Below, piece by piece: positions 1 through 12,168 of a stretch of 50,903 nt of DNA. The number at the start of each line of letters is the position of its first letter. Position 1 is the stretch's first letter. The stretch comes from Gammaproteobacteria bacterium (lineage in GTDB: Bacteria; Pseudomonadota; Gammaproteobacteria; SZUA-152): contig JAKIUF010000032.1 in the NCBI GenBank assembly GCA_021647705.1, forward strand, positions 1 through 50,903. The letters run 5' to 3'. The translations under genes and the position numbers were made by a program. The notes below the pieces were generated by a model, which was not told where the DNA came from, did no database searches, and saw only the letters and a list, made by a program, of their open reading frames with translations.

Positions 1-39
1 CAAGGGTGGGGTGGTAATGGCACGGGTGGAGTAGTTTCT

Positions 40-555
40 TTAATTTTCATCTGGCGGCAGAAAAATACGCTGCGGCTCACTGATGTCTGTTATGTTCACT
101 AAGTCCCATTGCTCGTTGTTGCGGTACAACCGTTTGTTTTTGTCCGGGTAATCCGCCACATCCTGTTCGAGCCGTTGCCCCATTACCAGGCATTGCAGCA
201 GGTCATCACCGTCGTTGATGATATTGTGTGCCGCTACGCCGCGCGGGAAACCAAGAAAATCTCCTGGCTCTACGGTGTAACGCTCACCATCGATGATGGC
301 CGTGCCCCAGCCAGAGAGAATGTAAACACACTCCTCCTCGTAAAAGTGTTTGTGATATTCCGTTGTGTCATGGCCGGGTTTTACGCTGATAATATGTACG
401 CCAATTTGCGTTAGGCCCACCGCATCGCCGAGAGATTTGTTAATGCGCACGGCATTGGGGTTGAGGAAATGAATCCGCTTTTCACCGGACATCGCAGTGA
501 TGTCGGTCGATTTTAATATGAGATTATGTTTGTTCACCTCGGATTTTCTCCTCAT
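40..555 (-). CDS. Cupin domain protein
   Basis: A 171-residue single-domain cupin. Motif 1 is visible as H68-x-H70 followed by acidic residues 73-75 and a Gly-rich turn. Motif 2 is the PGDF-to-H110 stretch (PRGVAAH), so a mononuclear metal site of the usual His-His-Glu-His type is likely. No signal peptide is seen, so it should be cytoplasmic. Its substrate cannot be told; cupins of this layout include sugar-binding, dioxygenase and regulatory proteins. The ATG at 555 has a weak AGAGA upstream. A GTG seven codons later has a better GGAG about ten bases before it, so the first six residues are uncertain. It is transcribed away from the Fic operon and has no functional partner in view. Confidence 0.88.
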   Translation of the reverse strand: MRRKSEVNKHNLILKSTDITAMSGEKRIHFLNPNAVRINKSLGDAVGLTQIGVHIISVKPGHDTTEYHKHFYEEECVYILSGWGTAIIDGERYTVEPGDFLGFPRGVAAHNIINDGDDLLQCLVMGQRLEQDVADYPDKNKRLYRNNEQWDLVNITDISEPQRIFLPPDEN

Positions 556-720
556 TTAATCTCTTTGGGTTCAATTCCCCGCAGTTTGTCCAGGAACGCC
601 GTTTTTGGTGTTATGAATACCGTCATTCTGACACAGGCCAGAATTCAGAGGCTCTGAAACCCTCGGGCACCGGCCTTTGTCAGTGTGATGTTAATATCTC
701 ATCAGTTTGCTGCGAGGCTG

Positions 721-800
721 TTTATTTTTTCTTTGCGTCCCTCGTGCCTTTGCGTTTATAACACGTCACTTGCCCGTGCCACGATAACATAGCCTTCCGG
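721..800 (+). repeat. Dispersed repeat, copy A
   Basis: A CTTTGCGT...CTTTGCGTTTATAACAC core is followed by a conserved tail (CACTTG, GT-CCAC, ATAACAT). The same tail recurs inverted near 21466-21520 and directly near 24154-24200. Only one arm of the palindromic core is present in this copy. Confidence 0.7.
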
Positions 801-919
801 GAGCTTAGGTCTCTGGATTCCGGCTAACAATATGCCGGAATAACGGTGTTTTCAGTTTTAAAGCGAAAATCATGATGCGATAGAGAGGTGCGCTTACTTT
901 CTCTGATATGACGACCTGT

Positions 920-984
920 TCGACATATAGGCAGCATATGTCGAAAATAATAGAATAGCTCGACATAAGTCCGCATAATGTCGA
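920..984. promoter_or_regulatory. Tandem palindromic operators upstream of fic
   Basis: Two 25-bp inverted repeats lie end to end. The first is TCGACATAT-N7-ATATGTCGA at 920-944, with perfect 9-bp arms. The second spans 960-984, with TCGACAT and ATGTCGA arms of 7 bp. Their centres are 40 bp apart, close to four helical turns, and the second ends about 50 bp before the fic start. This is the arrangement expected for cooperative binding of two dimers of a winged-helix regulator. The Fic protein has such a domain at its C-terminus, so autoregulation is an obvious possibility, but this is inference. Confidence 0.65.
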
Positions 985-1036
985 AACAACCAGCTACACG
1001 CCAACAACAATAATCAGGGATTACAGAATAGTTATT

Positions 1037-2197
1037 ATGCCAAGTTTTAATCCAGATCAGCCATACAACGCTTTGCCTGCCCTGCCGCCGAAGCAAGAGC
1101 TGGAAACCCGGGCGATCTGGAAATTATGCACAGAGGCCCGTGTCGCGCTGGCCGAGCTGAAACAGGTGGGTGAGCTGATTTCAAATCAGTCAATACTGAT
1201 AAACACCATACCCCTGCTGGAGGCACAAGCCAGCTCAGAGATCGAGAACATTGTTACCACCAGCGACCAGCTATTTCGCTTTGCCGATGCCGATATCAAT
1301 AATGGCACCAACCAAACAGACCCGGCGATTAAAGAAGCATTGCGTTATCGCACCGCCCTCTATCAAGGGTTCCATGCCCTGCAAAAGCGTCCGTTAAATG
1401 CCAGTCTGGCGGTAAAGCTCTGCTGCACCATCAAAGGCAGTGATCTGGATATTCGCCGTGTTCCCGGTACAACGCTTGCCAATGACCGAACCAGCGAAGT
1501 GATCTATACGCCGCCTGCTGGCGAAGCGATCCTGCGCCAGCTACTTGCCAACTGGGAACAGTTTCTCCACAACCATGACGAAATCGACCCGCTGGTACGC
1601 ATGGCTGTAGCGCATTATCAATTCGAAACAATTCACCCCTTTACCGACGGCAATGGCCGTACTGGTCGGCTGCTTAATATCCTCTATCTGGTCGATCAAA
1701 AACTGCTCAGTCTGCCGGTGCTTTACCTCTCACGACACATCATCCAAAACAAAGCCGACTACTACCGCCTGCTGTTGGGTGTCACCCAAAATAACCACTG
1801 GCATGAGTGGATCACCTTCATGCTCACCGCCGTCAAAGAGACCGCCCACTGGACCACGGCAAAGATACGTGCAGTACGCCAGTTGCAAGAACAGGCCGTT
1901 GACTGTGTGCGCCAGCAACAGCCTGCTATCTATAGCCAGGAGCTGATCGATCAGATCTTCATCCAGCCCTATTGCCGTATTGGAAATCTGGTCGATGCAG
2001 GCATTGGCCACCGTGAAACCGTTTCAAAGTACCTTAAAGCGTTATGTGATATTGGTATGTTGCAAGAGGTTAAAGCAGGCAGGGAGAAATTGTTTGCGCA
2101 TACCAGGTTGTTGCAACTGCTGACAACGGACAGTGATGAAAAGAATAGCAATAAATTGACCCCGTACAGCGAGGCTAAAAGTGGAACGCTGGAGTAA
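1037..2197 (+). CDS. Fic family AMP-transferase with C-terminal winged helix
   Basis: A 386-residue Fic/DOC protein. The core motif HPFTDGNGRTGR at residues 200-211 carries the catalytic His200 and is a complete HPFxDGNGRxxR. An inhibitory-helix motif S-x-x-x-E-N at residues 66-71 marks it as a class II (N-terminally self-inhibited) Fic protein that probably transfers AMP from ATP to hydroxyl side chains. Residues about 300-375 form a winged-helix-like region (IGHRETVSKYLKAL) typical of Fic proteins that may bind DNA. No separate antitoxin gene precedes it, which fits self-inhibition. It is first in a run of five co-directional genes, ending 6 bp before the methyltransferase start, so it is probably co-transcribed with them. 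Whether it is part of the defence module or only regulates it is not known. Confidence 0.93.
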   Translation: MPSFNPDQPYNALPALPPKQELETRAIWKLCTEARVALAELKQVGELISNQSILINTIPLLEAQASSEIENIVTTSDQLFRFADADINNGTNQTDPAIKEALRYRTALYQGFHALQKRPLNASLAVKLCCTIKGSDLDIRRVPGTTLANDRTSEVIYTPPAGEAILRQLLANWEQFLHNHDEIDPLVRMAVAHYQFETIHPFTDGNGRTGRLLNILYLVDQKLLSLPVLYLSRHIIQNKADYYRLLLGVTQNNHWHEWITFMLTAVKETAHWTTAKIRAVRQLQEQAVDCVRQQQPAIYSQELIDQIFIQPYCRIGNLVDAGIGHRETVSKYLKALCDIGMLQEVKAGREKLFAHTRLLQLLTTDSDEKNSNKLTPYSEAKSGTLE

Positions 2198-2203
2198 GCA
2201 ACA

Positions 2204-4987
2204 TTGAACGCGGTTGAAATAGAAGAAGCCATTGCCCACTTAGCCGAACAGTCGTTCGATGCGGAGGCATTTCCGTTTGCCTTTTTAGAGGCTTTTGGTA
2301 ATAAGAAGACCACCATCAAGCGCCTTAAAACCGGTTCGTCTAATGCCTCAGATATTGATGGTGGTGTGCTGCAACGCAGCAATATTCATATCGCGGTGTG
2401 TGGCGAGGGGGATGTAACCAACACACTTGGTCAACTCAAGGCCAGCCCCACCACCAGTAAGGCCAAGGCCAGGTTTGTGTTGGCGACGGATGGCGTAACC
2501 CTTGAAGCTGAAGATCTCACCTCAGGTGAGCCTCCCATCGTCTGTCACTATTCAGACTTCCCCAACCACTTCGGTTTCTTTCTGCCGCTGGCGGGCATTA
2601 CCACCGTCAAACAAATCCGCAACAACCCCATCGACATTCAGGCCACGGGTCGTTTGAATCGCCTCTATGTTCAACTGCTAAAAGACAATGAAGAGTGGGC
2701 CAGCGAAGCCCGCCGCCATGACATGAACCACTTCATGGCGCGGCTGATCTTCTGCTTTTTCGCCGAAGACACCGACATCTTCAACAGCGACAATCGGTTT
2801 ACCGCCACCATCGAGCAGATGAGCGACAGCCGTTCAGACAACACCGAGTATGTGTTGGGTGAACTGTTTCGCGCCATGGACATCCATCCAGATGATCGAG
2901 CAACCGCCAACCTGCGCAACTGGGCTGATGACTTTCCCTACGTCAACGGCGGCCTGTTTACGGGTAACAAAGAGATTCCACGCTTTAGCCGCATCGCCCG
3001 CTCCTACCTGCTTCACGCCGGTCGTTTGAACTGGAAAGAGATCAACCCCGACATCTTCGGCTCCATGATCCAGGCCGTCGCCAATGACGATGAACGCGGC
3101 GAGCTGGGGATGCACTACACCAGCGTGCCCAACATCCTCAAAGTGCTGAACCCGCTGTTTCTGGATGATTTGCGCGAACAGTTGGAACAGGCCGGAGAGA
3201 ACCCTCGCAAGCTGTTAAACCTGCGCAAGCGCATCGCCAACATCCGTGTGTTTGACCCCGCCTGCGGCTCGGGCAATTTTCTGGTGATCGCCTATATCCA
3301 GATGCGCGAGATCGAGGCCGAAATCCTGCGCCGACGCGGCGAGGCTAACCAAAAATCGTGGATCAGGCTGGAGAACTTTTACGGCATCGAATTAAAGGAC
3401 TTTGCGGTGGAGGTTGCTCGGCTCTCCCTGCTGATTGCCGAGTTTCAGTGCGATGTGCGTTTGATCGGGCAAAAGGAGGCCAAGGCGCTGGTGCTGCCGT
3501 TGAAAAAAACCGGCCAGATTCACCAGGGTAATGCTTTGCGTATGGATTGGCTTGAAGTCTGTCCGCCGACAAAGCTGGTTGAACAGGTGCGTGAAGACTT
3601 GTTTGATGATGTTCCAGAGAAATCAGATATAGAGTTTGATGGGCAAGATGCAGAGACCTATATTTGTGGAAACCCCCCGTACAAGGAGAGTCAAACCCAA
3701 AATACAGAGCAAAAAACTGACTTAGACTTGCTTTTCAAAGGGCATGTTCGTTCTGCAAAACAACTTGATTATGTCTCCGGTTGGTTTTTCAAAGCAGCAC
3801 AGTATGGCAAAGCCACAAATTGTGTGAGTGCCTTCGTCAGCACAAACTCAATTTGCCAAGGCCGTATTGTATCTATTCTTTGGCCGCTTATATTCCAAAC
3901 AGGCTGCGAAATAGTTTTTGCCCATACTTCTTTTAAGTGGGCCAATTTGGCTGCTCATAATGCGGGGGTTACAGTTGTAATCGTTGGCGTTGGTTCATCT
4001 ACTAAGTCTCAGCGCTGTCTGTACTCCGAAAATGAAGACGGAGAAACTAATGTCCAAAACGTAGGGGCAATTAACCCGTACCTTACGCCTGGAATAAAAA
4101 CAATCGTCGAGAAACGAACAAAGCCTCTTGGTAGCCTGTCAACAATGGACTTTGGAAATATGCCCGTTGATGGCGGCGCATTGTTGCTTAGTAGAAGCAC
4201 CTTGGAAGGTATGTCTATTACACAGGAACAAAAAGAGCGCTTTATTAAAAATGTTTTTGGGTCTTCTGAATTTATTCGGGGAACAAAAAGATTTTGTTTA
4301 TGGATCACTGAGCACGAATTAGATGATGCACAATCTATCGACTCTATTTGCAAACGAATATATCAAGTGAAATCTTTTCGTTTGCAAAGCAAGGATTCTG
4401 GAACCAGGGCTCTTTCTTCATATCCCTACAGGTTCAGGGAGCAAAAATATGGCTCTGTTCATACCATAATTGTTCCAAGTGTCAGCTCAGAAAATCGTAG
4501 CTACTTACCCGTTGGTTTGTTGGATAATAAATCAGTAGTAACCAATCTTGCATTCGCCCTCTACGACGCCCCACTCTGGAACATGGCTCTAATCGCGTCC
4601 CGCATTCATTTAGTCTGGATAGCGACAGTATGCGGAAAAATGAAAACGGACTTTCGTTATTCCAACACCCTCGGCTGGAACACCTTCCCCGTCCCACCCC
4701 TCACCGAAAAAAACAGAGCCGACCTGACCCGCTGTGCCGAAGAGATCCTGCTGGCACGGGAAGCGCACTTTCCGGCCACCATTGCCGATCTCTACGCCCC
4801 CGACAAGATGCCGGATAATCTGCGCCGCGCCCATGAGCGCAATGATGAGGTGCTGGAGCGCATCTACATCGGTCGCCGTTTTAAAAACGATACCGAGCGG
4901 TTGGAGAAGCTGTTTGATCTCTACACCAAAATGACAACAGGCGCGGCCAAGTCAGGCGCGAAAGTGACAAGGGGGAAGCGCGCATGA
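2204..4987 (+). CDS. MmeI-like class I DNA methyltransferase (N6-adenine type)
   Basis: A 927-residue enzyme with the layout of MmeI/type IIL proteins. It has an N-terminal region, a helical spacer (HFMARLIFCFFAEDT, about 177-190), GMHYTS at 302-307, SAM motif I DPACGSGNF at 351-359, catalytic NPPY at 490-493, a target-recognition region (about 560-830) and a C-terminal MmeI-like tail (LYAPDKMPDNLRRAH). NPPY points to N6-adenine methylation. I see no clear PD-(D/E)XK triad in the first 160 residues, so the nuclease may be supplied in trans by the next gene. It starts with TTG at 2204, with GGAG nine bases before it inside the fic stop region. Its stop overlaps the next start (ATGA). DNA coding for about 3590-4650 is visibly more AT-rich than its flanks, suggesting an exchanged recognition domain. 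Confidence 0.93.
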   Translation: MNAVEIEEAIAHLAEQSFDAEAFPFAFLEAFGNKKTTIKRLKTGSSNASDIDGGVLQRSNIHIAVCGEGDVTNTLGQLKASPTTSKAKARFVLATDGVTLEAEDLTSGEPPIVCHYSDFPNHFGFFLPLAGITTVKQIRNNPIDIQATGRLNRLYVQLLKDNEEWASEARRHDMNHFMARLIFCFFAEDTDIFNSDNRFTATIEQMSDSRSDNTEYVLGELFRAMDIHPDDRATANLRNWADDFPYVNGGLFTGNKEIPRFSRIARSYLLHAGRLNWKEINPDIFGSMIQAVANDDERGELGMHYTSVPNILKVLNPLFLDDLREQLEQAGENPRKLLNLRKRIANIRVFDPACGSGNFLVIAYIQMREIEAEILRRRGEANQKSWIRLENFYGIELKDFAVEVARLSLLIAEFQCDVRLIGQKEAKALVLPLKKTGQIHQGNALRMDWLEVCPPTKLVEQVREDLFDDVPEKSDIEFDGQDAETYICGNPPYKESQTQNTEQKTDLDLLFKGHVRSAKQLDYVSGWFFKAAQYGKATNCVSAFVSTNSICQGRIVSILWPLIFQTGCEIVFAHTSFKWANLAAHNAGVTVVIVGVGSSTKSQRCLYSENEDGETNVQNVGAINPYLTPGIKTIVEKRTKPLGSLSTMDFGNMPVDGGALLLSRSTLEGMSITQEQKERFIKNVFGSSEFIRGTKRFCLWITEHELDDAQSIDSICKRIYQVKSFRLQSKDSGTRALSSYPYRFREQKYGSVHTIIVPSVSSENRSYLPVGLLDNKSVVTNLAFALYDAPLWNMALIASRIHLVWIATVCGKMKTDFRYSNTLGWNTFPVPPLTEKNRADLTRCAEEILLAREAHFPATIADLYAPDKMPDNLRRAHERNDEVLERIYIGRRFKNDTERLEKLFDLYTKMTTGAAKSGAKVTRGKRA

Positions 4988-6054
4988 GCAATGAGACAGG
5001 TGATCAACCCATCCGCCTGACACCGCCCCCCGAGGGCTACGCCGACTGGCTGATTGAACTCAAGGGGCGCATTCATAGCGCCCGGCAGCGCGCCACGCTG
5101 GCGGTCAACCGCGAACTGGTACTGCTCTACTGGCAGATCGGCCGCGACATTCTGGCACGACAGGCGGAAGCGGGCTGGGGCGCGAAGGTGATCGAGCGGT
5201 TGGCGCAGGATTTGCGCACCGCCTTTCCCGAGATGAAGGGGTTTTCGCCGCGTAATCTCAAATACATGCGCGCCTTTGCCGAGGCCTGGCCGGATGCCGA
5301 ATTTGTGCAAGAGGTGCTTGCACAATTACCCTGGTATCACCAGTTGGCGCTGCTGGATAAGTTGCCCGACCTCGAAACCCGCCGCTGGTATGCGGCTAAA
5401 GCGATTGAACACAATTGGTCGCGTAATATTCTGGTGATGCAGATCGAAACCCGCCTGCTGGAACGCAGCGGCACGGCGGTCACTAATTTCGCCACCAGCC
5501 TGCCCAAGCCTCACTCCGACCTGGCCCGCGAATCGCTGAAAGACCCTTACCGTTTCGACTTTCTGGGCCTCAGCGATGAAGCGCAGGAGCGCGAGGTCGA
5601 GAACGCCCTGGTGAAGCATGTCACCGAGTTTCTGCTGGAACTTGGCGCGGGGTTCGCGTTCGTCGGGCGGCAGCTGCTGCTGGACGTGGGCGGTGACGAG
5701 TTTTTCATCGACCTGTTGTTCTACCACCTCAAGCTGCGCTGCTATGTGGTGATTGAACTCAAGGGCGGCAAATTCAGACCTGAGCACCTGGGGCAGTTGG
5801 GCTTTTACCTCACCGCGGTAGATGCCCAGATCAGGCACCCGCAGGATGGCCCGACCATCGGCCTGCTGCTATGCAAGAGCAAGAACAGGGTCGTGGCCGA
5901 ATATGCGCTGCGCGACAACGCTCAACCCATCGGTGTGGCCGAATATCAACTGGTGGAGTCCTTGCCCAGGGAGTTGCAGACCAGCCTGCCCAGCATCGAG
6001 CAGATTGAGCACGAGCTGTCGGGTGGCGACTCATCCATCGACGATGACGCATAA
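4984..6054 (+). CDS. YhcG/DUF1016 family PD-(D/E)XK nuclease
   Basis: A 356-residue protein. It has a DUF1016 N-terminal helical domain (about 20-180, with RGRIHSARQRATLAVNRELV-type helices) and a C-terminal PD-(D/E)XK nuclease domain. The likely metal-binding residues are D243 (FIDLL), E258 and K260 (IELK), followed by Q271 (QLGFY). Family members act as nucleases or Holliday-junction-type factors and occur next to restriction-modification genes. Here the gene overlaps the methyltransferase by 4 bp, so the two are translationally coupled. It is the best candidate for the cutting subunit. Length is normal for the family and the ends look intact. Confidence 0.92.
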   Translation: MSNETGDQPIRLTPPPEGYADWLIELKGRIHSARQRATLAVNRELVLLYWQIGRDILARQAEAGWGAKVIERLAQDLRTAFPEMKGFSPRNLKYMRAFAEAWPDAEFVQEVLAQLPWYHQLALLDKLPDLETRRWYAAKAIEHNWSRNILVMQIETRLLERSGTAVTNFATSLPKPHSDLARESLKDPYRFDFLGLSDEAQEREVENALVKHVTEFLLELGAGFAFVGRQLLLDVGGDEFFIDLLFYHLKLRCYVVIELKGGKFRPEHLGQLGFYLTAVDAQIRHPQDGPTIGLLLCKSKNRVVAEYALRDNAQPIGVAEYQLVESLPRELQTSLPSIEQIEHELSGGDSSIDDDA

Positions 6055-6100
6055 TGAATTTACTGAAGGCAATGCCATGAATCAAACCGTACCTTTGCTG

Positions 6101-6176
6101 GTTCCCATGCTCCTGCGTGGGAACCCATACCGCGCTTACGGCTGGTCTGCATTCCCTCGCGGAGCATGGAAACGAG
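6101..6176. repeat. REP-like palindromic element
   Basis: GTTCCCA (6101-6107) pairs with TGGGAAC (6118-6124), forming one hairpin. The outer arms GTTCCCATGCTCC (6101-6113) and GGAGCATGGAAAC (6161-6173) are inverted with one mismatch. It fills the only sizeable gap in the five-gene island. Elements of this look are common short extragenic repeats in gammaproteobacteria and are mobilised by RAYT transposases; a RAYT-type gene lies at the right end of this window. It may partly uncouple transcription of the last two genes from the first three. Confidence 0.75.
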
Positions 6177-6200
6177 AAAAGAGTTACTTAATAGGAAAAT

Positions 6201-8252
6201 ATGATGGCAGATAAATCGATCCCTCACGTCTCTGTTAACTATGCCCGCACTGGCCGTTCAAAAAAATCCAACGAGCTGGGTATGCGAGTGATGCAGGAAC
6301 GCGCTTATGAAAAACGTGGCGAACAATATTTATTGATTAAATCACCACCGGCCTCAGGTAAAAGCCGGGCGCTGATGTTTATTGCGCTGGATAAGTTGCA
6401 CAATCAGGGTTTAACGCAGGCGATTATCGTGGTGCCGGAAAAATCCATCGGCGCGAGTTTTAATAATGAGCCGCTGCGTCAATTCGGCTTTTGGGCTGAC
6501 TGGCAGGTTGAACCGAAATGGAACCTCTGCAATGCACCGGGTGAAGATGGCGGCAAGGTCAATTCCGTAAAGGCGTTTTTAGCGAGCAATGACAAAGTGC
6601 TGGTCTGTACTCACGCCACCTTACGTTTTGCGGTGGATCGTTTTGGTGTGGCCGCCTTTGATAATCGCTTGATTGCGGTGGATGAGTTTCATCATGTCAG
6701 TGCCAATCCAGACAATAAGCTAGGCGCACATCTTGGTCAGTTTCTTGCCCGCAATAAAGTGCATATTGTGGCGATGACCGGCTCCTATTTCCGTGGTGAT
6801 GCGGTGGCAGTGTTGACACCGCAGGATGAGGCTAATTTCGAAACCATCACCTACACCTACTACGAACAGCTTAACGGTTATGAATATCTGAAAACGCTGG
6901 ATATCGGTTATTACTTCTACTCGGGCGCTTACTCGAATGAGATCCTGAGTGTGTTAGATCCTAACGAAAAAACCATCATCCATATTCCCAATGTTAATTC
7001 GCGTGAAAGCACCAAGGATAAGATCAAGGAAGTCGAACATATTATTGAGGAGCTGGGCAGCTGGAAAGGCATTGACCCTGAGACGGGTTTTCATCTGGTT
7101 GAGGCATCGAATGGGAAAATAATCAAAATTGCCGACCTGGTGGATGATGATGCGGCTAGGCGCGATAAGGTATCCACGGCGTTAAAGCTGCCGGAGGCCA
7201 AGCATAATCGCGACCATGTGGATATCATCATTGCACTGGGCATGGCCAAAGAAGGCTTTGACTGGATCTGGTGCGAACATGCGCTGACGGTAGGTTATCG
7301 CTCCAGCCTGACCGAGATTATCCAGATCATCGGTCGTGCTACCCGTGATGCCAAAGGTAAAACTCATGCCCGCTTTACCAATCTGATTGCCGAACCCAAT
7401 GCCGAAGAAGAGGCGGTGGTGGATGCGGTCAACGATACCTTAAAGGCCATTGCTGCCAGTTTGCTGATGGAACAGGTGCTTGCGCCCAGGTTTAACTTCA
7501 CCCCTAAAAACAAACAGAGTGGCCCGGTTGATGGATACGACTATGGGGAGAATGGCTACGATCCAAAAAGTAGTAATGTTGGCTTTAATGAATCAACCGG
7601 CCAATTTCAAATTGAGATTAAGGGGCTGGTCGCACCAAAGAGTGACGATGCCCAGCGTATTTGTCAGGAAGACCTGAACGAAGTGATTACGGCCTTTGTG
7701 CAAGATAAAACAACGCTTGAACGCGGCCTGTTTGATCAAGAGATGGTGCCTGAAGAACTGACCCAGGTGCGCATGGCGACGATTGTGAAAGAGAAATACC
7801 CTGAGCTGGATGATGAAGATCAGGAGGCGGTTCGCCAACATGCGATTGCTGCCCTTAATTTGACGCAAAAGGCCAAAGAGGTTGTGAATGGCAGTGATGA
7901 GTTACAGAAGAGTGGCAGCACGGCCTTGATCGACGGAGTGCGAAAATTTGCCATGGATGTGCGTGACCTGGATATCGATTTAATTGATCGCATCAACCCA
8001 TTCAATGAGGCCTATGCGGTGCTTTCCAAAGCCATGACCGAAGAGAGTTTGAAACAGGTGGCTGCGGTCATTTCCGCCAAACGTATCAACCTCAGCCTCG
8101 AAGATGCCCGCATGTTAGCCAAGCGCGCTTTGACGTTTAAGCAAGAGCGTAATCGGTTGCCATCGCTAACCTCTCAAGACCCCTGGGAAAAACGCATGGC
8201 TGAAGGAATCGCCTACTTGCAGCAAAAGGCAAAGGAGGCGAAGGGTGATTGA
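6201..8252 (+). CDS. DEAD/DEAH-box-type superfamily 2 helicase
   Basis: A 683-residue SF2 ATPase resembling type III restriction helicase subunits. It has Walker A PPASGKS (49-55), motif II DEFHH (161-165), motif III AMTGS (191-195), motif V GMAKEGFDW (347-355) and motif VI IGRATRD (377-383). The C-terminal 280 residues are unassigned, helical and charged. It has no nuclease motif of its own. AGGA lies five bases before ATG 6201; a second in-frame ATG follows at 6204. Its last codons overlap the next gene by 8 bp, so it very likely works with the GIY-YIG protein. It may translocate on DNA for the nuclease(s) of this island. Confidence 0.92.
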   Translation: MMADKSIPHVSVNYARTGRSKKSNELGMRVMQERAYEKRGEQYLLIKSPPASGKSRALMFIALDKLHNQGLTQAIIVVPEKSIGASFNNEPLRQFGFWADWQVEPKWNLCNAPGEDGGKVNSVKAFLASNDKVLVCTHATLRFAVDRFGVAAFDNRLIAVDEFHHVSANPDNKLGAHLGQFLARNKVHIVAMTGSYFRGDAVAVLTPQDEANFETITYTYYEQLNGYEYLKTLDIGYYFYSGAYSNEILSVLDPNEKTIIHIPNVNSRESTKDKIKEVEHIIEELGSWKGIDPETGFHLVEASNGKIIKIADLVDDDAARRDKVSTALKLPEAKHNRDHVDIIIALGMAKEGFDWIWCEHALTVGYRSSLTEIIQIIGRATRDAKGKTHARFTNLIAEPNAEEEAVVDAVNDTLKAIAASLLMEQVLAPRFNFTPKNKQSGPVDGYDYGENGYDPKSSNVGFNESTGQFQIEIKGLVAPKSDDAQRICQEDLNEVITAFVQDKTTLERGLFDQEMVPEELTQVRMATIVKEKYPELDDEDQEAVRQHAIAALNLTQKAKEVVNGSDELQKSGSTALIDGVRKFAMDVRDLDIDLIDRINPFNEAYAVLSKAMTEESLKQVAAVISAKRINLSLEDARMLAKRALTFKQERNRLPSLTSQDPWEKRMAEGIAYLQQKAKEAKGD

Positions 8253-9432
8253 TAAATCCGACCTCGACTTACTGGGCGAGCTTGGCGTTAATATTGCGCC
8301 AGATAAAAAGGTGGCTCACTCACCACGGGAAGAGCGCATTATTGCCGGGTTTGAAGAGATTCAACGTTTTGTTGATCAGCATGGCCGCCCGCCTGTGCAT
8401 GGCGAAGAGAATGATATTTTTGAGCGGCTTTATGCAACGCGGCTGGATCAGATTCGCCAGCAGGCAAAATGCCGGGAACTACTTCGGGATTTAGACCATC
8501 AAGGATTGCTGGATGACTCTTATCAGGATGAGGCACCTACCCTTGATGAGCTGAATGATGATGAACTGCTGACACAATTAGGTGTGCCAGAATCAAGCGA
8601 AGGAGATGTAACGCATCTCAAGCATGTTAAGTCTCGTGCTGAAATAAGAGCCGCAGAGGAAATTGCAAGCCGCATGCCTTGCAAAGATTTTGATAAATTT
8701 AAACCCCTGTTTGAAACGGTGCAAACAGAGATTGAAAATGGCATAAGAGAGATAAAACCGTTCAGAGATTATGCAGAAATTCTGGAAGGTGATTTTTTTA
8801 TTCTCTCTGGCCAGAAAGCTTATGTTGCCGAAGTGGGTGAAGAATTTCTGGGTGAACATGGTCGGCCTGACGCACGCTTACGTCTGATTTATGATAATGG
8901 CACTGAAAGCGATTTGTTAATGCGTTCATTACAGAGAGCGCTTAATAAAGACCCCGCAGGTCGGCGCATTACTGACAACTCACCAGGGCCACTATTTTCT
9001 GGCGTGATGGATGGTGAAGAGTTGGCCAGTGGCATAATCTATGTGCTGCGCAGTCAATCTGACCATCCGGTTATCGAAAAAAGCCGTGATGTCATACATA
9101 AAATTGGCGTCACCAGTGGCAGTGTTGAGAAGCGTATCGCCAACGCCAAGCTTGATCCCACTTTTTTAATGGCCAAGGTTGACGTGGTGGCTGAATATAC
9201 GCTCTACAATATCAACCGATCAAAACTGGAAAAGCTTATTCATACGTTTTTTAATGGTGCGCGATTAGATATTGAAATTAATGATCGGTTCGGGCATCCG
9301 GTTGTTCCCAGGGAATGGTTCCTGGTGCCGTTGTTTGTGATTGATGATGTGGTTGAAAAAATTAAGGATGGAACGATTGGCAGGTATGTATACGACATGA
9401 AGTCCGCAGCTCTGGTCTCCGATGAAAGGTAA
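8245..9432 (+). CDS. GIY-YIG nuclease family protein (T5orf172 type)
   Basis: A 395-residue protein whose last 140 residues form a GIY-YIG/T5orf172 domain. It shows GIIYVLRS (263-270), HKIGVT (285-290), the catalytic-type Arg297 and Glu329. The N-terminal 250 residues (acidic, helical) are not recognised and may be a partner- or DNA-binding part. It starts with GTG at 8245, six bases after an AAAGGAGG ribosome site inside the helicase gene. It is the last gene of the five-gene run. Together with the DUF1016 protein the island carries two unrelated nuclease folds around one methyltransferase and one helicase. Confidence 0.9.
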   Translation: MIDKSDLDLLGELGVNIAPDKKVAHSPREERIIAGFEEIQRFVDQHGRPPVHGEENDIFERLYATRLDQIRQQAKCRELLRDLDHQGLLDDSYQDEAPTLDELNDDELLTQLGVPESSEGDVTHLKHVKSRAEIRAAEEIASRMPCKDFDKFKPLFETVQTEIENGIREIKPFRDYAEILEGDFFILSGQKAYVAEVGEEFLGEHGRPDARLRLIYDNGTESDLLMRSLQRALNKDPAGRRITDNSPGPLFSGVMDGEELASGIIYVLRSQSDHPVIEKSRDVIHKIGVTSGSVEKRIANAKLDPTFLMAKVDVVAEYTLYNINRSKLEKLIHTFFNGARLDIEINDRFGHPVVPREWFLVPLFVIDDVVEKIKDGTIGRYVYDMKSAALVSDER

Positions 9433-9489
9433 TGCGGGTTTGGTCGTTTTGTATTACAACAATTCACCAAACACTGTGACTGTCAATAG

Positions 9490-9561
9490 TTTTCACCGCA
9501 AAAGGAGCACGAAGACTGAAGGTTTATTTTTTCGCACCTCTTTGCATCCTTTGTGGTGAAA
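9490..9561. repeat. Imperfect inverted repeat, remnant of the dispersed family
   Basis: TTTCACCGCAAAAGGA (9491-9506) is inverted against TCCTTTGTGGTGAAA (9547-9561). The wording (GCAAAGG...CCTTTGC-like arms) resembles the core of the repeats at 24073 and 21508. A 17-bp stretch just after it (AAGTGATTTAGCCCTTA, about 9580-9596) also recurs inverted near 21360. Confidence 0.5.
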
Positions 9562-9695
9562 TGTGAATTAAGCACCAGCAAAGTGATTTAGCCCTTATGT
9601 TCATATTTAAAATGAAAATCATAATGGGGTAGAGAATATGTTGCCAGTCTATATTACTATCAGCAAACGATTATTGATCTTGTCAGGAGAGAGTC

Positions 9696-10412
9696 ATGCC
9701 TATATTGCGTCCACCCCATTTTTTGTTATTCCTATTTTTTATCATGGTCTCATTATTGTCAGCGGCAACGATGGCCAGCGAGGATAATGATACGCACTAT
9801 GATCGCATCAGCCTGCTGGCCACAGCTTCAGATGAAATCGAGAATGATATTCTTGAAACGACATTGTCTGTACAGCGTGAAGGTAATAATCCGTCGGAAT
9901 TATCGGAGGAAGTAAACACAACGATTCAGTGGGCTATTACTGAAGCTAAAAAAGTCAGTGGGGTCACGGTGCAGACCATGGGTTATCAGACCAATCCCGT
10001 TTATCAGCAACGGCGTTTGTCGGCTTGGCGGGTGCGACAAAGCCTGCGCCTGGAAAGCAAGGATATTGCCAAATTAAGCCAGCTAATTGGTAAGTTGCAA
10101 GAGCGTTTGACGGTGGACCGGGTCGGTTATCGTATTTCCGTCCAGCGCCGTAATACGGTGGAGGAAAACCTGATTACTGAGGCAATAGCACTTTTTCAGC
10201 AGCGTTCGAAGCTGGTTGCAAAACAGATGAACCGTGATCGTTATCGCGTGGTGAAAATGAATATTAATGCCGGAGGTGCGCCAATGCGGCCAATGATGAT
10301 GCGAGCAGAAATGTCGGCGATGGCTGATACACGTATCGCTCCCAGTTTTGAAGCAGGTGTACAAACGGTTACGGTTTCAGTGAATGGCACCATCGAGTTG
10401 CAGTTGGATTGA
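9696..10412 (+). CDS. SIMPL domain (DUF541) periplasmic protein
   Basis: A 238-residue protein with a signal peptide (hydrophobic core about 8-26, cleavage near ATMA-SE). A SIMPL/DUF541 domain follows, recognised by the long alternating beta/alpha repeats, the SAWRVRQSLRLES segment and the C-terminal VTVSVNGTIEL strand. Family members are periplasmic or outer-membrane-linked proteins (for example E. coli YggE) with poorly defined roles in stress tolerance. A clear AGGAGAG precedes the ATG. It is monocistronic and converges with the next gene. Confidence 0.88.
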   Translation: MPILRPPHFLLFLFFIMVSLLSAATMASEDNDTHYDRISLLATASDEIENDILETTLSVQREGNNPSELSEEVNTTIQWAITEAKKVSGVTVQTMGYQTNPVYQQRRLSAWRVRQSLRLESKDIAKLSQLIGKLQERLTVDRVGYRISVQRRNTVEENLITEAIALFQQRSKLVAKQMNRDRYRVVKMNINAGGAPMRPMMMRAEMSAMADTRIAPSFEAGVQTVTVSVNGTIELQLD

Positions 10413-10586
10413 GCCCAAAGTTACAAACACATTGTCTGGAATGATTTTTGGTGTGCGATGAGAGCTGGCGACCGTATATCAAAAAACGTGGAACAAAATG
10501 TGTCTTGAGGTATCTTTACGATGATAGTCATTAATGATATTGCTGATCCGGAATGCTCTTTGATTTGCTGGTAAGTATTTAGAAAA

Positions 10587-10609
10587 CCCCAAGGATAATA
10601 TCCTTGGGG
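10587..10609 (-). terminator. Rho-independent terminator of the glycoside-hydrolase gene
   Basis: A perfect 11-bp stem (CCCCAAGGATA / TATCCTTGGGG) with one central base. On the minus strand it is followed by TTTTCT. It lies 18 bp beyond the stop of the minus-strand gene that ends at 10627. Confidence 0.8.
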
Positions 10610-10626
10610 GGACGATGTGCAGCTAA

Positions 10627-12168
10627 TTACGGACTGATTTCAAAGCTTGAGTTGGTGATATTAGGGCGAGGAAGAGTGCTGATGACTGGGTTTTTAAGTA
10701 AAATGATACCTTCGCTTTCACCTAGAGTGACGCTGGAAACCGCTGTTCCGGTGGTGTTATCCACGAGTAGAGGGTAATAATTGCCACCTAATTGATAAGT
10801 GACTGGATTGTTACCTATATTGGCAAGCCCACCTTGACCAAATTTTGCCAGCACCAGCGCATTTGAATACTCACGGGCTAGCACACTACTACCACTGTCA
10901 GATGCAAGTTCATAGAAGCGGTCCGTGTTTGCTGCATTCCAAGAGTCAGTGCCTGTTCGCGTAACGGGCACTCCGATATTCACTTCCATATTCCGGTGCC
11001 AGTGACTGGTTCGAAAATTGCCATAGGGTGTGCCTCCATAGTTGGCTGCACTCCCCTCGTGATACATAAAGTAGGCATTTTCATGATTAATCAGATAATG
11101 AGTCGCCAGGATAAAGCGGGTAAAAGCATAGGGAATATCCTGCATGGTTGAGGTGACATTGGTTTGACTGCGGATTAACATTTTACGGCCATTTTCTAGG
11201 TCGTCATAAACATCCCTAAGGCGGGGAATGCGAGATCGTCCGCTGGTACTTGTCACCATATATTCGATAGTGAGGTGCATCGTTTTGTCACGCTGGTCTA
11301 CATAAAGATCGGGAAACCATTGATACACAATATCGGCATCGGCAGCATTGGCGTTGACCACAAATGAATTATTATCGGTCTGTTGTTTGAGATATGCTTC
11401 CAGCTCTATTTTTGCATCTAAAAGATCTTGTTGTATCTGATTGTAGACCTCTTCAATACTCCGGCTGCCATCGGGGTTCAGCTCAATCGTATTTTGTAAG
11501 TTACTTGTCCATGGTCCGCTATTTTGTATGCCGTCGAAAGTATCTAGGAATACACCGTCCAAAAAGGTGTTGGAAACCCCTGCAACGCTGATTTCATACA
11601 ATGCATATGCTTCAAAGGCGCGTCGAAAAGTTATTGAAGTTGGGTTAATGCCTACCCATCCTCCATTCCAGCGAACGCGTGCGCGTGCCTCTGCCAGCGT
11701 AGTGGCGCTGCCGTTAGGACCAAAACCCGGTACAGTTATACTGCCGCCGAGTATTCTCACTTCAGAGTCCGAGTGATAGTGATAGTAAATATTTTCCGGA
11801 TCGTGGCCATTATTGCTTGCCCAGTTTTCCATCCACGTCATAGCATCTGGGGCGAGGCTATGGTAGGCCAAATAACGCATGAGCCTGGTGTCAGGGTTTG
11901 CCTCTTTAATCGTAGTGTAGAGCTGTATATCCCAGTTGTTGCCCCCTCCTATAATCCAGTCATGATGCTGTGCTAGCCATGTGGCCTCAGCTAAGCGGTT
12001 ATTTAGAGGAGCATAATCAAAACCAAATGTTTTTATATGTGGGAAGTTCTGTGCAGTTGCTGTGCTAGCCAGCAGCGTTAATGAGACTATGATTGTGCCC
12101 AGCAAGGAGAGCTTTTTACGTTGGCGTTGAAAAAAGCTGTTTAACCGTGGTTTTTCAGAAGAGCTCAT
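10627..12168 (-). CDS. Secreted putative glycoside hydrolase (GHL15-like)
   Basis: A 513-residue protein with a basic N-terminus (RQRKKL), a hydrophobic segment about 21-39 and a likely cleavage site at TATA-QN. The body resembles the putative glycosyl-hydrolase-like GHL15/DUF4015 group: FGFDYAP near the start, GNNWDIQLYTTIKEANPDTRLMRYL-type barrel strands, and GVFLDTFDGIQ (about 206-216) with two Asp residues where barrel hydrolases hold their acids. The C-terminal 110 residues look like a beta-sandwich. It is probably exported to act on an extracellular or envelope polysaccharide; the substrate is unknown. The gene stands alone with its own terminator. Confidence 0.75.
   Translation of the reverse strand: MSSSEKPRLNSFFQRQRKKLSLLGTIIVSLTLLASTATAQNFPHIKTFGFDYAPLNNRLAEATWLAQHHDWIIGGGNNWDIQLYTTIKEANPDTRLMRYLAYHSLAPDAMTWMENWASNNGHDPENIYYHYHSDSEVRILGGSITVPGFGPNGSATTLAEARARVRWNGGWVGINPTSITFRRAFEAYALYEISVAGVSNTFLDGVFLDTFDGIQNSGPWTSNLQNTIELNPDGSRSIEEVYNQIQQDLLDAKIELEAYLKQQTDNNSFVVNANAADADIVYQWFPDLYVDQRDKTMHLTIEYMVTSTSGRSRIPRLRDVYDDLENGRKMLIRSQTNVTSTMQDIPYAFTRFILATHYLINHENAYFMYHEGSAANYGGTPYGNFRTSHWHRNMEVNIGVPVTRTGTDSWNAANTDRFYELASDSGSSVLAREYSNALVLAKFGQGGLANIGNNPVTYQLGGNYYPLLVDNTTGTAVSSVTLGESEGIILLKNPVISTLPRPNITNSSFEISP

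What the first reader, a model, noticed from the sequence alone, without database searches (positions are those of the whole stretch)
1037..9432. Five-gene Fic / MTase / DUF1016 / helicase / GIY-YIG island
Seen: five co-directional genes with 4-8 bp overlaps or short gaps, combining an AMPylator, an MmeI-like methyltransferase with no visible nuclease triad, a PD-(D/E)XK nuclease, an SF2 helicase and a GIY-YIG nuclease. Known: each family occurs in restriction or anti-phage contexts. Inference: this may be a composite defence system in which modification, translocation and cutting are split over separate proteins and Fic either guards or regulates it. I do not recognise this exact set as a named system.
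Basis: partly seen in the sequence, partly recalled or inferred. Interest (0 to 1): 0.75.

Follow-up and report, generated by a model that had tools for sequence, protein, structure and literature searches.

The report
Split-enzyme phage-defence operon with guests
A known kind of three-gene bacterial DNA-defence operon has picked up two extra genes, one of them a Fic toxin whose control region carries a repeated DNA signature, so the five genes look like a core plus passengers rather than a new five-part machine.

Summary
The five co-directional genes are real, but not a conserved five-gene system. Genes 2, 4 and 5 are the known DnmA(YeeA)-YeeB-YeeC triad: an MmeI-family methyltransferase without its nuclease, an SF2 helicase and a GIY-YIG protein; the last two are adjacent in 80 of 80 related loci. 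The gap between methyltransferase and helicase is a cargo slot: at most 60 bp in 32 of 75 loci, over 300 bp in 43, never between. DUF1016 is one such cargo: GC 60.6%, before the helicase in six other loci here, 83% identical to one inside a Type I operon. Fic, a SoFic, sits in a leader position; the intact five-gene set was seen nowhere else. The nearest relative keeps a Fic remnant and a toxin-antitoxin pair instead of DUF1016. A same-genus genome lacks the island. New: dyads TCGACAT-N11-ATGTCGA lie before 17 of 20 SoFic genes, often in tandem 30 or 40 bp apart, against 0 of 17 divergent Fics and 4 of 648 control windows. This predicts that SoFic represses itself and, here, the operon. New variant of a known kind.

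The parts
851..886 (+). left copy of a 36-nt flanking direct repeat (81% identical to 9600-9635); suggestive only
   Evidence: family D5; a similar sequence lies at the empty site of the same-genus genome G197
920..944 (+). predicted SoFic operator dyad 1, TCGACAT-N11-ATGTCGA
960..984 (+). predicted SoFic operator dyad 2, 40 bp from dyad 1
1037..2197 (+). SoFic: class II Fic AMP-transferase with C-terminal SoFic-like_C domain; leader gene
2204..4987 (+). DnmA/YeeA-type MmeI-family adenine methyltransferase, N-terminal nuclease triad absent; MmeI_TRD at residues 632-833
4984..6054 (+). DUF1016/YhcG PD-(D/E)XK protein (PADLOC PDC-S02); cargo in the methyltransferase/helicase slot, GC 60.6%
6093..6181 (.). 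intergenic repeat with imperfect 21-nt inverted arms between DUF1016 and helicase; four other partial matches in the genome, three of them overlapping or close on contig C27
6201..8252 (+). YeeB-type SF2 helicase/translocase
8245..9432 (+). YeeC-type GIY-YIG (T5orf172) putative nuclease
9600..9635 (+). right copy of the flanking direct repeat; suggestive only

Best explanation
The island is one horizontally acquired restriction-modification operon built on the DnmA-YeeB-YeeC triad. Proposed mechanism: DnmA methylates an adenine in a site set by its recognition domain and so marks self DNA; on unmethylated invading DNA it serves as the recognition subunit, YeeB is the ATP-driven translocase and YeeC the GIY-YIG nuclease, i.e. 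a Type I-like division of labour made from a nuclease-dead MmeI enzyme. DUF1016 is an accessory PD-(D/E)XK nuclease carried in a slot behind the methyltransferase gene, most likely a back-up or retaliation activity, tied to it by a 4-bp overlap. SoFic is a self-inhibited AMP-transferase in the leader position that probably represses its own promoter through the tandem dyads and, as first gene, tunes the operon. Shown here: gene content, conserved active-site letters, synteny, slot variation, recognition-domain divergence, empty site, dyads. Inferred: restriction activity, complex formation, the role of DUF1016, DNA binding by SoFic, co-transcription.
For: Triad conserved: YeeC starts within 60 bp of YeeB in 80 of 80 loci; DnmA sequence upstream in 75 of 80, 4 of the 5 misses being at a contig start. 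At 97% or more conserved: helicase motifs in 99 sequences, GIY-YIG residues in 98; no conserved ExK in the N-terminus of 84 MTases (window row included). Window against nearest relative L002: MTase residues 601-750 are 31-50% identical, the other blocks 64-100% except the C-terminal one at 48%, as expected of diversifying specificity. Mobility: cupin and SIMPL flank the island here but are adjacent in same-family G064; in same-genus G197 window 1-560 (78%) and 9612-9662 (76% over 51 bp) lie 10 bp apart, and neither has the helicase; a Polaromonas plasmid carries MTase-DUF1016-helicase-GIY and another the last three. DUF1016: GC 60.6% against 47.5-52.0% in the other 1-kb blocks of 1001-9000; the 7 copies next to DnmA or YeeB fall in an 11-row clade (100/99) with 3 Type I copies and 1 solitary one. 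SoFic dyads. In print: deletion of the homologues in Vibrio crassostreae raised sensitivity to some phages (as told in PMC9973331, passage read).
Against: In B. subtilis, deletions of dnmA, yeeB or yeeC left phage sensitivity unchanged and deletion of dnmA left transformation unchanged (PMC9973331, PMC7261158, passages read); its authors call it a relic. The YeeB and YeeC models were too weak to add support. SoFic is not needed for the triad: of 68 loci with a visible upstream region only L002 has a SoFic relic, and L044 a distant Fic (26%) 1.3 kb away. One locus (L053) has helicase and GIY-YIG without an MTase in 10 kb.
Confidence: 0.7

Rival explanations
1. A true five-component defence system in which Fic, DUF1016 and the triad work as one complex or pathway.
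For: Tight co-directional spacing and one acquired block that holds all five; both added families have PADLOC defence models.
Against: Intact five-gene set in 0 of 80 loci (upstream visible in 68) and 0 of 11 other class-survey genomes. L002, 93% identical in the helicase, keeps the triad with a Fic remnant abutting tRNA-Arg and a Phd/YefM-ParE-like pair instead of DUF1016. DUF1016 differs in GC.
Confidence: 0.08
2. A decayed relic in which only the methyltransferase works, as proposed for B. subtilis DnmA.
For: B. subtilis phenotypes (PMC9973331, PMC7261158, passages read).
Against: Catalytic motifs intact in window and conserved in relatives; recognition domain diverging fast; widespread, also on plasmids (153 of 264 matching plasmid records cover at least 80% of the helicase, at any identity).
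Confidence: 0.15
3. Fic and DUF1016 are selfish toxin-type passengers that stabilise the island, with no part in restriction or its control.
For: The two positions also hold PIN/VapC-like, ParE/YefM-like, BrnT, CcdA, HEPN and RhuM genes; SoFic also stands alone or in plasmid backbone regions.
Against: DUF1016 often sits behind the methyltransferase gene in both DnmA and Type I operons, though not always: after hsdS, before HsdM-like genes in L134 and L137. SoFic is followed after 8 bp by hsdM in G119 as after 6 bp by dnmA here.
Confidence: 0.3

Closest known systems
DnmA(YeeA)-YeeB-YeeC of Bacillus subtilis
   Same: MmeI-family MTase without nuclease, then SF2 helicase, then T5orf172/GIY-YIG, same order (PMC7261158, PMC9973331, passages read)
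   Different: Window adds DUF1016 between MTase and helicase and SoFic in front; B. subtilis copy reported inactive in restriction. I did not align the window proteins to the B. subtilis ones
MmeI (Type IIL restriction enzyme)
   Same: Five MmeI Pfam domains; alignment to PDB 5hr4 from residue 90 on
   Different: No nuclease triad; nuclease and helicase would be supplied in trans by neighbours
Type I restriction-modification with embedded accessory genes
   Same: Division of labour and a shared cargo pool: hsdM-DUF1016-hsdS-rhuM-hsdR, SoFic-hsdM-hsdS-RhuM/Fic fusion; multi-level defence with HEPN, DOC/Fic and RhuM proposed in PMC3710099 (passages read)
   Different: No HsdM/S/R here; MTase with its own recognition domain, GIY-YIG nuclease
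SoFic (Shewanella oneidensis; PDB 3eqx, 3zcn, 9tch)
   Same: Same family over the curated cut-off, close sequence match over residues 5-368, inhibitory helix and Fic motif
   Different: Leads a restriction operon instead of standing alone
CccR and CbFic2 (class II Fic proteins with winged HTH)
   Same: CccR represses its own promoter through a palindrome; CbFic2 activity is changed by DNA binding (PMC9755527, PMC10628234, passages read)
   Different: CccR footprint is AGATAATCAT-N26-ATGATAATCT, unlike TCGACAT-N11-ATGTCGA; PMC10628234 (2023) states that SoFic DNA binding had not been shown

Membership tests
DnmA-YeeB-YeeC | MmeI-family MTase lacking the N-terminal nuclease triad | tested here: met
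DnmA-YeeB-YeeC | SF2 helicase and T5orf172/GIY-YIG genes downstream in this order | tested here: met
   homology to B. subtilis YeeB and YeeC themselves not aligned, taken from family, order and one plasmid annotation naming YeeB
DnmA-YeeB-YeeC | helicase directly after the MTase | tested here: not met
   DUF1016 intervenes; but 43 of 75 relatives also have more than 300 bp there, so I do not count this as defining
DnmA-YeeB-YeeC | m6A at an asymmetric motif | not testable with these tools
   no methylome data
Type I restriction-modification | HsdM, HsdS and HsdR subunits | tested here: not met
   Pfam finds MmeI domains and no Methylase_S in the five proteins
Type IIL (MmeI) restriction enzyme | PD-(D/E)XK nuclease in the same chain | tested here: not met
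SoFic | NF046030 above curated cut-off, Fic motif, N-terminal inhibitory helix, SoFic-like_C | tested here: met
   604.2 against 550 bits
SoFic | downstream antitoxin AS1 (47 aa) reported for E. coli SoFic | not tested
   PMC12249575 passages read; Fic is followed after 6 bp by the MTase, leaving no room for such a gene between them
DUF1016/YhcG (PADLOC PDC-S02) | DUF1016_N plus YhcG_C with D-ExK | tested here: met
BREX / DISARM | PglX or DrmMI with their partner genes | tested here: not met
   MTase-domain matches only, far below the NCBIfam cut-offs for BREX and weaker than REase_MTase_IIG in PADLOC; no partner gene among the five

The most novel reading that the evidence does not exclude
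SoFic is a combined operator-binding repressor and guard of a restriction operon: bound to the phased dyads it is held silent and keeps the operon low; when a phage pulls it off DNA (DNA mimic, host DNA breakdown), the operon is derepressed and the freed enzyme AMPylates host targets as a second line. Restriction operons of two different kinds (Type I and DnmA-YeeBC) would share this leader and a common pool of slot genes.
Probability: 0.18. Interest if true: 0.75.

Novelty: new variant of a known kind. Interest (0 to 1): 0.48.

Why it matters
It replaces a supposed five-part machine with a rule that can be tested: a three-gene split restriction enzyme with two exchangeable positions, a leader position for regulators and toxins and an internal slot behind the methyltransferase, stocked from a pool shared with Type I operons. 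It also gives a concrete DNA sequence for the open question whether SoFic binds DNA, and offers intact-looking relatives of a triad reported inactive in B. subtilis.

Tried and rejected
Composite five-gene system: rejected on synteny. BREX or DISARM: only methyltransferase similarity. A known PADLOC profile covering all: PADLOC names the MTase Type IIG REase_MTase and Fic SoFic, has candidate PDC-S02 for DUF1016, weak PbeA/Cas3 matches for the helicase and nothing for the GIY-YIG protein. Phage origin: 3 phage records match the helicase, none over 80% of it. Rfam, window 1-12000: nothing. Promoter scan: no excess. GIY-YIG model: mean pLDDT 78 but pTM 0.39, no PDB match at E 0.001 or better, a local EF-P domain I-like match only; helicase model pLDDT 59, not searched. 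DUF1016: no solved relative by sequence. Morgan 2009 (MmeI family) is not held; its content is taken from the two B. subtilis papers. SoFic DNA against E. coli genomes: no match.

Results against the operator idea: 3 of 20 SoFic genes lack a dyad with up to 2 mismatches (L169; L172, an incomplete match; L206, a Salmonella plasmid); only 11 of the 20 have a pair 30 or 40 bp apart, L167 has 71, and five Alphaproteobacterial plasmid genes have one dyad each; 32 of 41 exact sites in 369 genomes are not at SoFic genes. The control pattern, read backwards, gave 2 sites, so the excess of single sites is not explained by chance alone; 21 of the 23 non-SoFic loci looked at have the site inside an ORF of 100 codons or more, and none has a second site 30 or 40 bp away. 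The direct repeat at the island edges is 81% over 36 nt and one of 24 families found, so it is suggestive only.

Full report
OBSERVATION. Pfam gives SoFic-type Fic, five MmeI domains, DUF1016/YhcG, a DEAD/ResIII helicase and T5orf172/MUG113. Active-site letters are present except in the MTase N-terminal domain, which has no D-x6-14-(D/E)xK and no conserved ExK in an alignment of 84.

CORE. In all 80 the GIY-YIG gene starts within 60 bp of the helicase stop; 75 of 80 have MTase sequence upstream. Four of the five without it begin too near a contig start to tell; L053 has 10 kb upstream and no MTase. In a separate class survey 12 of 369 genomes, own genome included, have the helicase at E 1e-50. 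Of the 11 others, 9 have the GIY-YIG gene within 60 bp, one has it after 661 bp and one contig ends first. G119 of that survey seems to be the same contig as L010 of the first set (equal contig length), so the sets overlap by one. The triad is dnmA-yeeB-yeeC: PMC9973331 and PMC7261158 (passages read) describe order, lost nuclease, defence context, the earlier Type I-like proposal, the negative phage and transformation tests in B. subtilis, and positive deletion data in Vibrio crassostreae by others.

INTERNAL SLOT. The MTase-helicase gap is at most 60 bp in 32 of 75 loci and over 300 bp in 43 of 75, with nothing between; among the 11 others of the class survey it is 4 and 7. Pfam on 30 chosen slot proteins (not all of them) finds RhuM, SLFN_AlbA_2, HEPN, BrnT, CcdA, Phd/YefM (just under its cut-off) with a ParE-like toxin, DUF3800 and a YobI-ATPase (PADLOC Tmn), besides weak matches; 13 of the 30 have no family at E 0.01. 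RhuM is also in the slot in 2 of the 11 other class-survey genomes. Five loci carry what looks like the same cassette, so counts are not independent events.

DUF1016. It lies in the slot in the window, L061, G304, G232 and plasmid pH1NP1, and directly before the helicase in L081 (contig starts there) and plasmid pE10SP1 (no MTase found upstream): seven places, the two plasmids found by searching with DUF1016 itself. In sets not chosen for it that is 2 of 80 loci and 3 of 12 class-survey genomes including the own one. PF06250 has matches in 67 of 369 genomes; of the 30 loci fetched, 12 have Type I genes within 1.5 kb and 2, one of them the window, have DnmA and YeeB (a lower bound, as only two sets of Hsd queries were used and some contigs end). 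In a 37-row tree those seven copies sit in one clade of 11 (100/99) with three Type I copies and one solitary copy; they are not a clade of their own. Window and G304 share 86% in DUF1016 but 69% in helicase, 60% in MTase and 53% in GIY-YIG, and DUF1016 stands out in GC: it seems to move as a cassette, though stronger constraint could explain part of the identity.

LEADER POSITION. Among 59 ORFs ending within 60 bp of a dnmA start, BLAST to representatives gives 9 HTH_17, 6 XRE, 7 PIN/VapC-like, 2 RHH, 2 resolvases, one HTH_37 and the Fic remnant of L002 (one HTH_17 is the L010/G119 duplicate); many of the rest look like chance ORFs. SoFic holds this place in the window. It also precedes hsdM, hsdS and a RhuM/Fic fusion in G119, and an HsdM-like and an hsdS gene in G145. 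That is 3 of 14 SoFic neighbourhoods inspected (13 fetched plus the window; three contigs end within about 500 bp of Fic) and 0 of 6 on plasmids.

NEAREST RELATIVE AND EMPTY SITE. L002 (helicase 93%, GIY 86%, MTase 78%) has tRNA-Arg abutting a Fic remnant (residues 267-386), and in the slot a repeat resembling, by eye, the one at window 6093-6181, followed by a toxin-antitoxin-like pair. MTase identity drops to 31-50% at residues 601-750. In same-genus G197 the two flanks lie 10 bp apart, the right one by a 51-bp match at 76% (E 2e-4); beyond it G197 differs and lacks SIMPL. In same-family G064 cupin and SIMPL are neighbours. None of G197, G064 and G301 has the helicase.

SOFIC OPERATOR. Two exact dyads TCGACAT-N11-ATGTCGA start 40 bp apart before Fic (with 2 mismatches allowed, 0 of 100 shuffles had two). 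The only other exact site in the 4.4-Mb genome lies before a second SoFic on contig C8, with a one-mismatch partner 40 bp on; two more one-mismatch sites lie elsewhere. A dyad with up to two mismatches lies within 250 bp upstream of 17 of 20 SoFic genes (at least 55% identity), 0 of 17 Fics below 50%, and 4 of 648 control windows of the same loci; block-shuffled upstreams average 0.03 of 20. Eleven of the 20 have pairs 30 or 40 bp apart. Over 369 genomes there are 41 exact sites, 9 of them before 8 SoFic genes in 7 genomes. Of 29 site loci inspected, the 6 with a second site 30 or 40 bp away are the 6 with a SoFic gene beside it. Precedents are CccR and CbFic2 (passages read). Two paper searches for a described SoFic operator (418 and 60 papers matched, 15 listed each) showed none in the titles and abstract openings; three of the listed papers were read in passages.

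VERDICT. A mobile DnmA-YeeB-YeeC operon with a DUF1016 cargo and a SoFic leader. The mechanism of the triad is inferred; the cargo rule and the SoFic dyads are the parts worth following.

Noticed in passing
G000 contig C8 51652-52731 (L191): Second SoFic, 86% identical to the window's, with its own dyad pair at 51525-51549 and 51565-51589; the two copies may cross-regulate.
   Followed up: partly
G000 contig C25 70312-71376: A third SoFic-like reading frame, below the SoFic cut-off, with one stop inside.
   Followed up: no
L002 6076-6505: tRNA-Arg (ccg) directly abuts a truncated Fic gene at the edge of the related island, as if integration or deletion used the tRNA.
   Followed up: partly
window 6093-6181 and L002 9309-9395: Look-alike intergenic repeat (GTTCCCA...TGGGAAC type, by eye) in the slot of both islands; four other partial matches to the window copy in the own genome.
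   Followed up: partly
window 10627-12168 (-): 513-aa reading frame with no Pfam match; its N-terminus looks like a signal peptide by eye.
   Followed up: no
L067 3013-9210: Large slot load: an unknown 454-aa protein, RhuM and a 1217-aa YobI/Tmn-type ATPase between MTase and helicase.
   Followed up: no
L182 and L183, upstream of divergent Fic genes: A different dyad type (TGTATAG) precedes two Fics of about 41-42% identity, hinting at other Fic operators.
   Followed up: no
L213 12308-18693 (E. coli G5): E. coli triad with empty slot, followed by a 1650-aa AAA-domain protein and an unknown gene.
   Followed up: no
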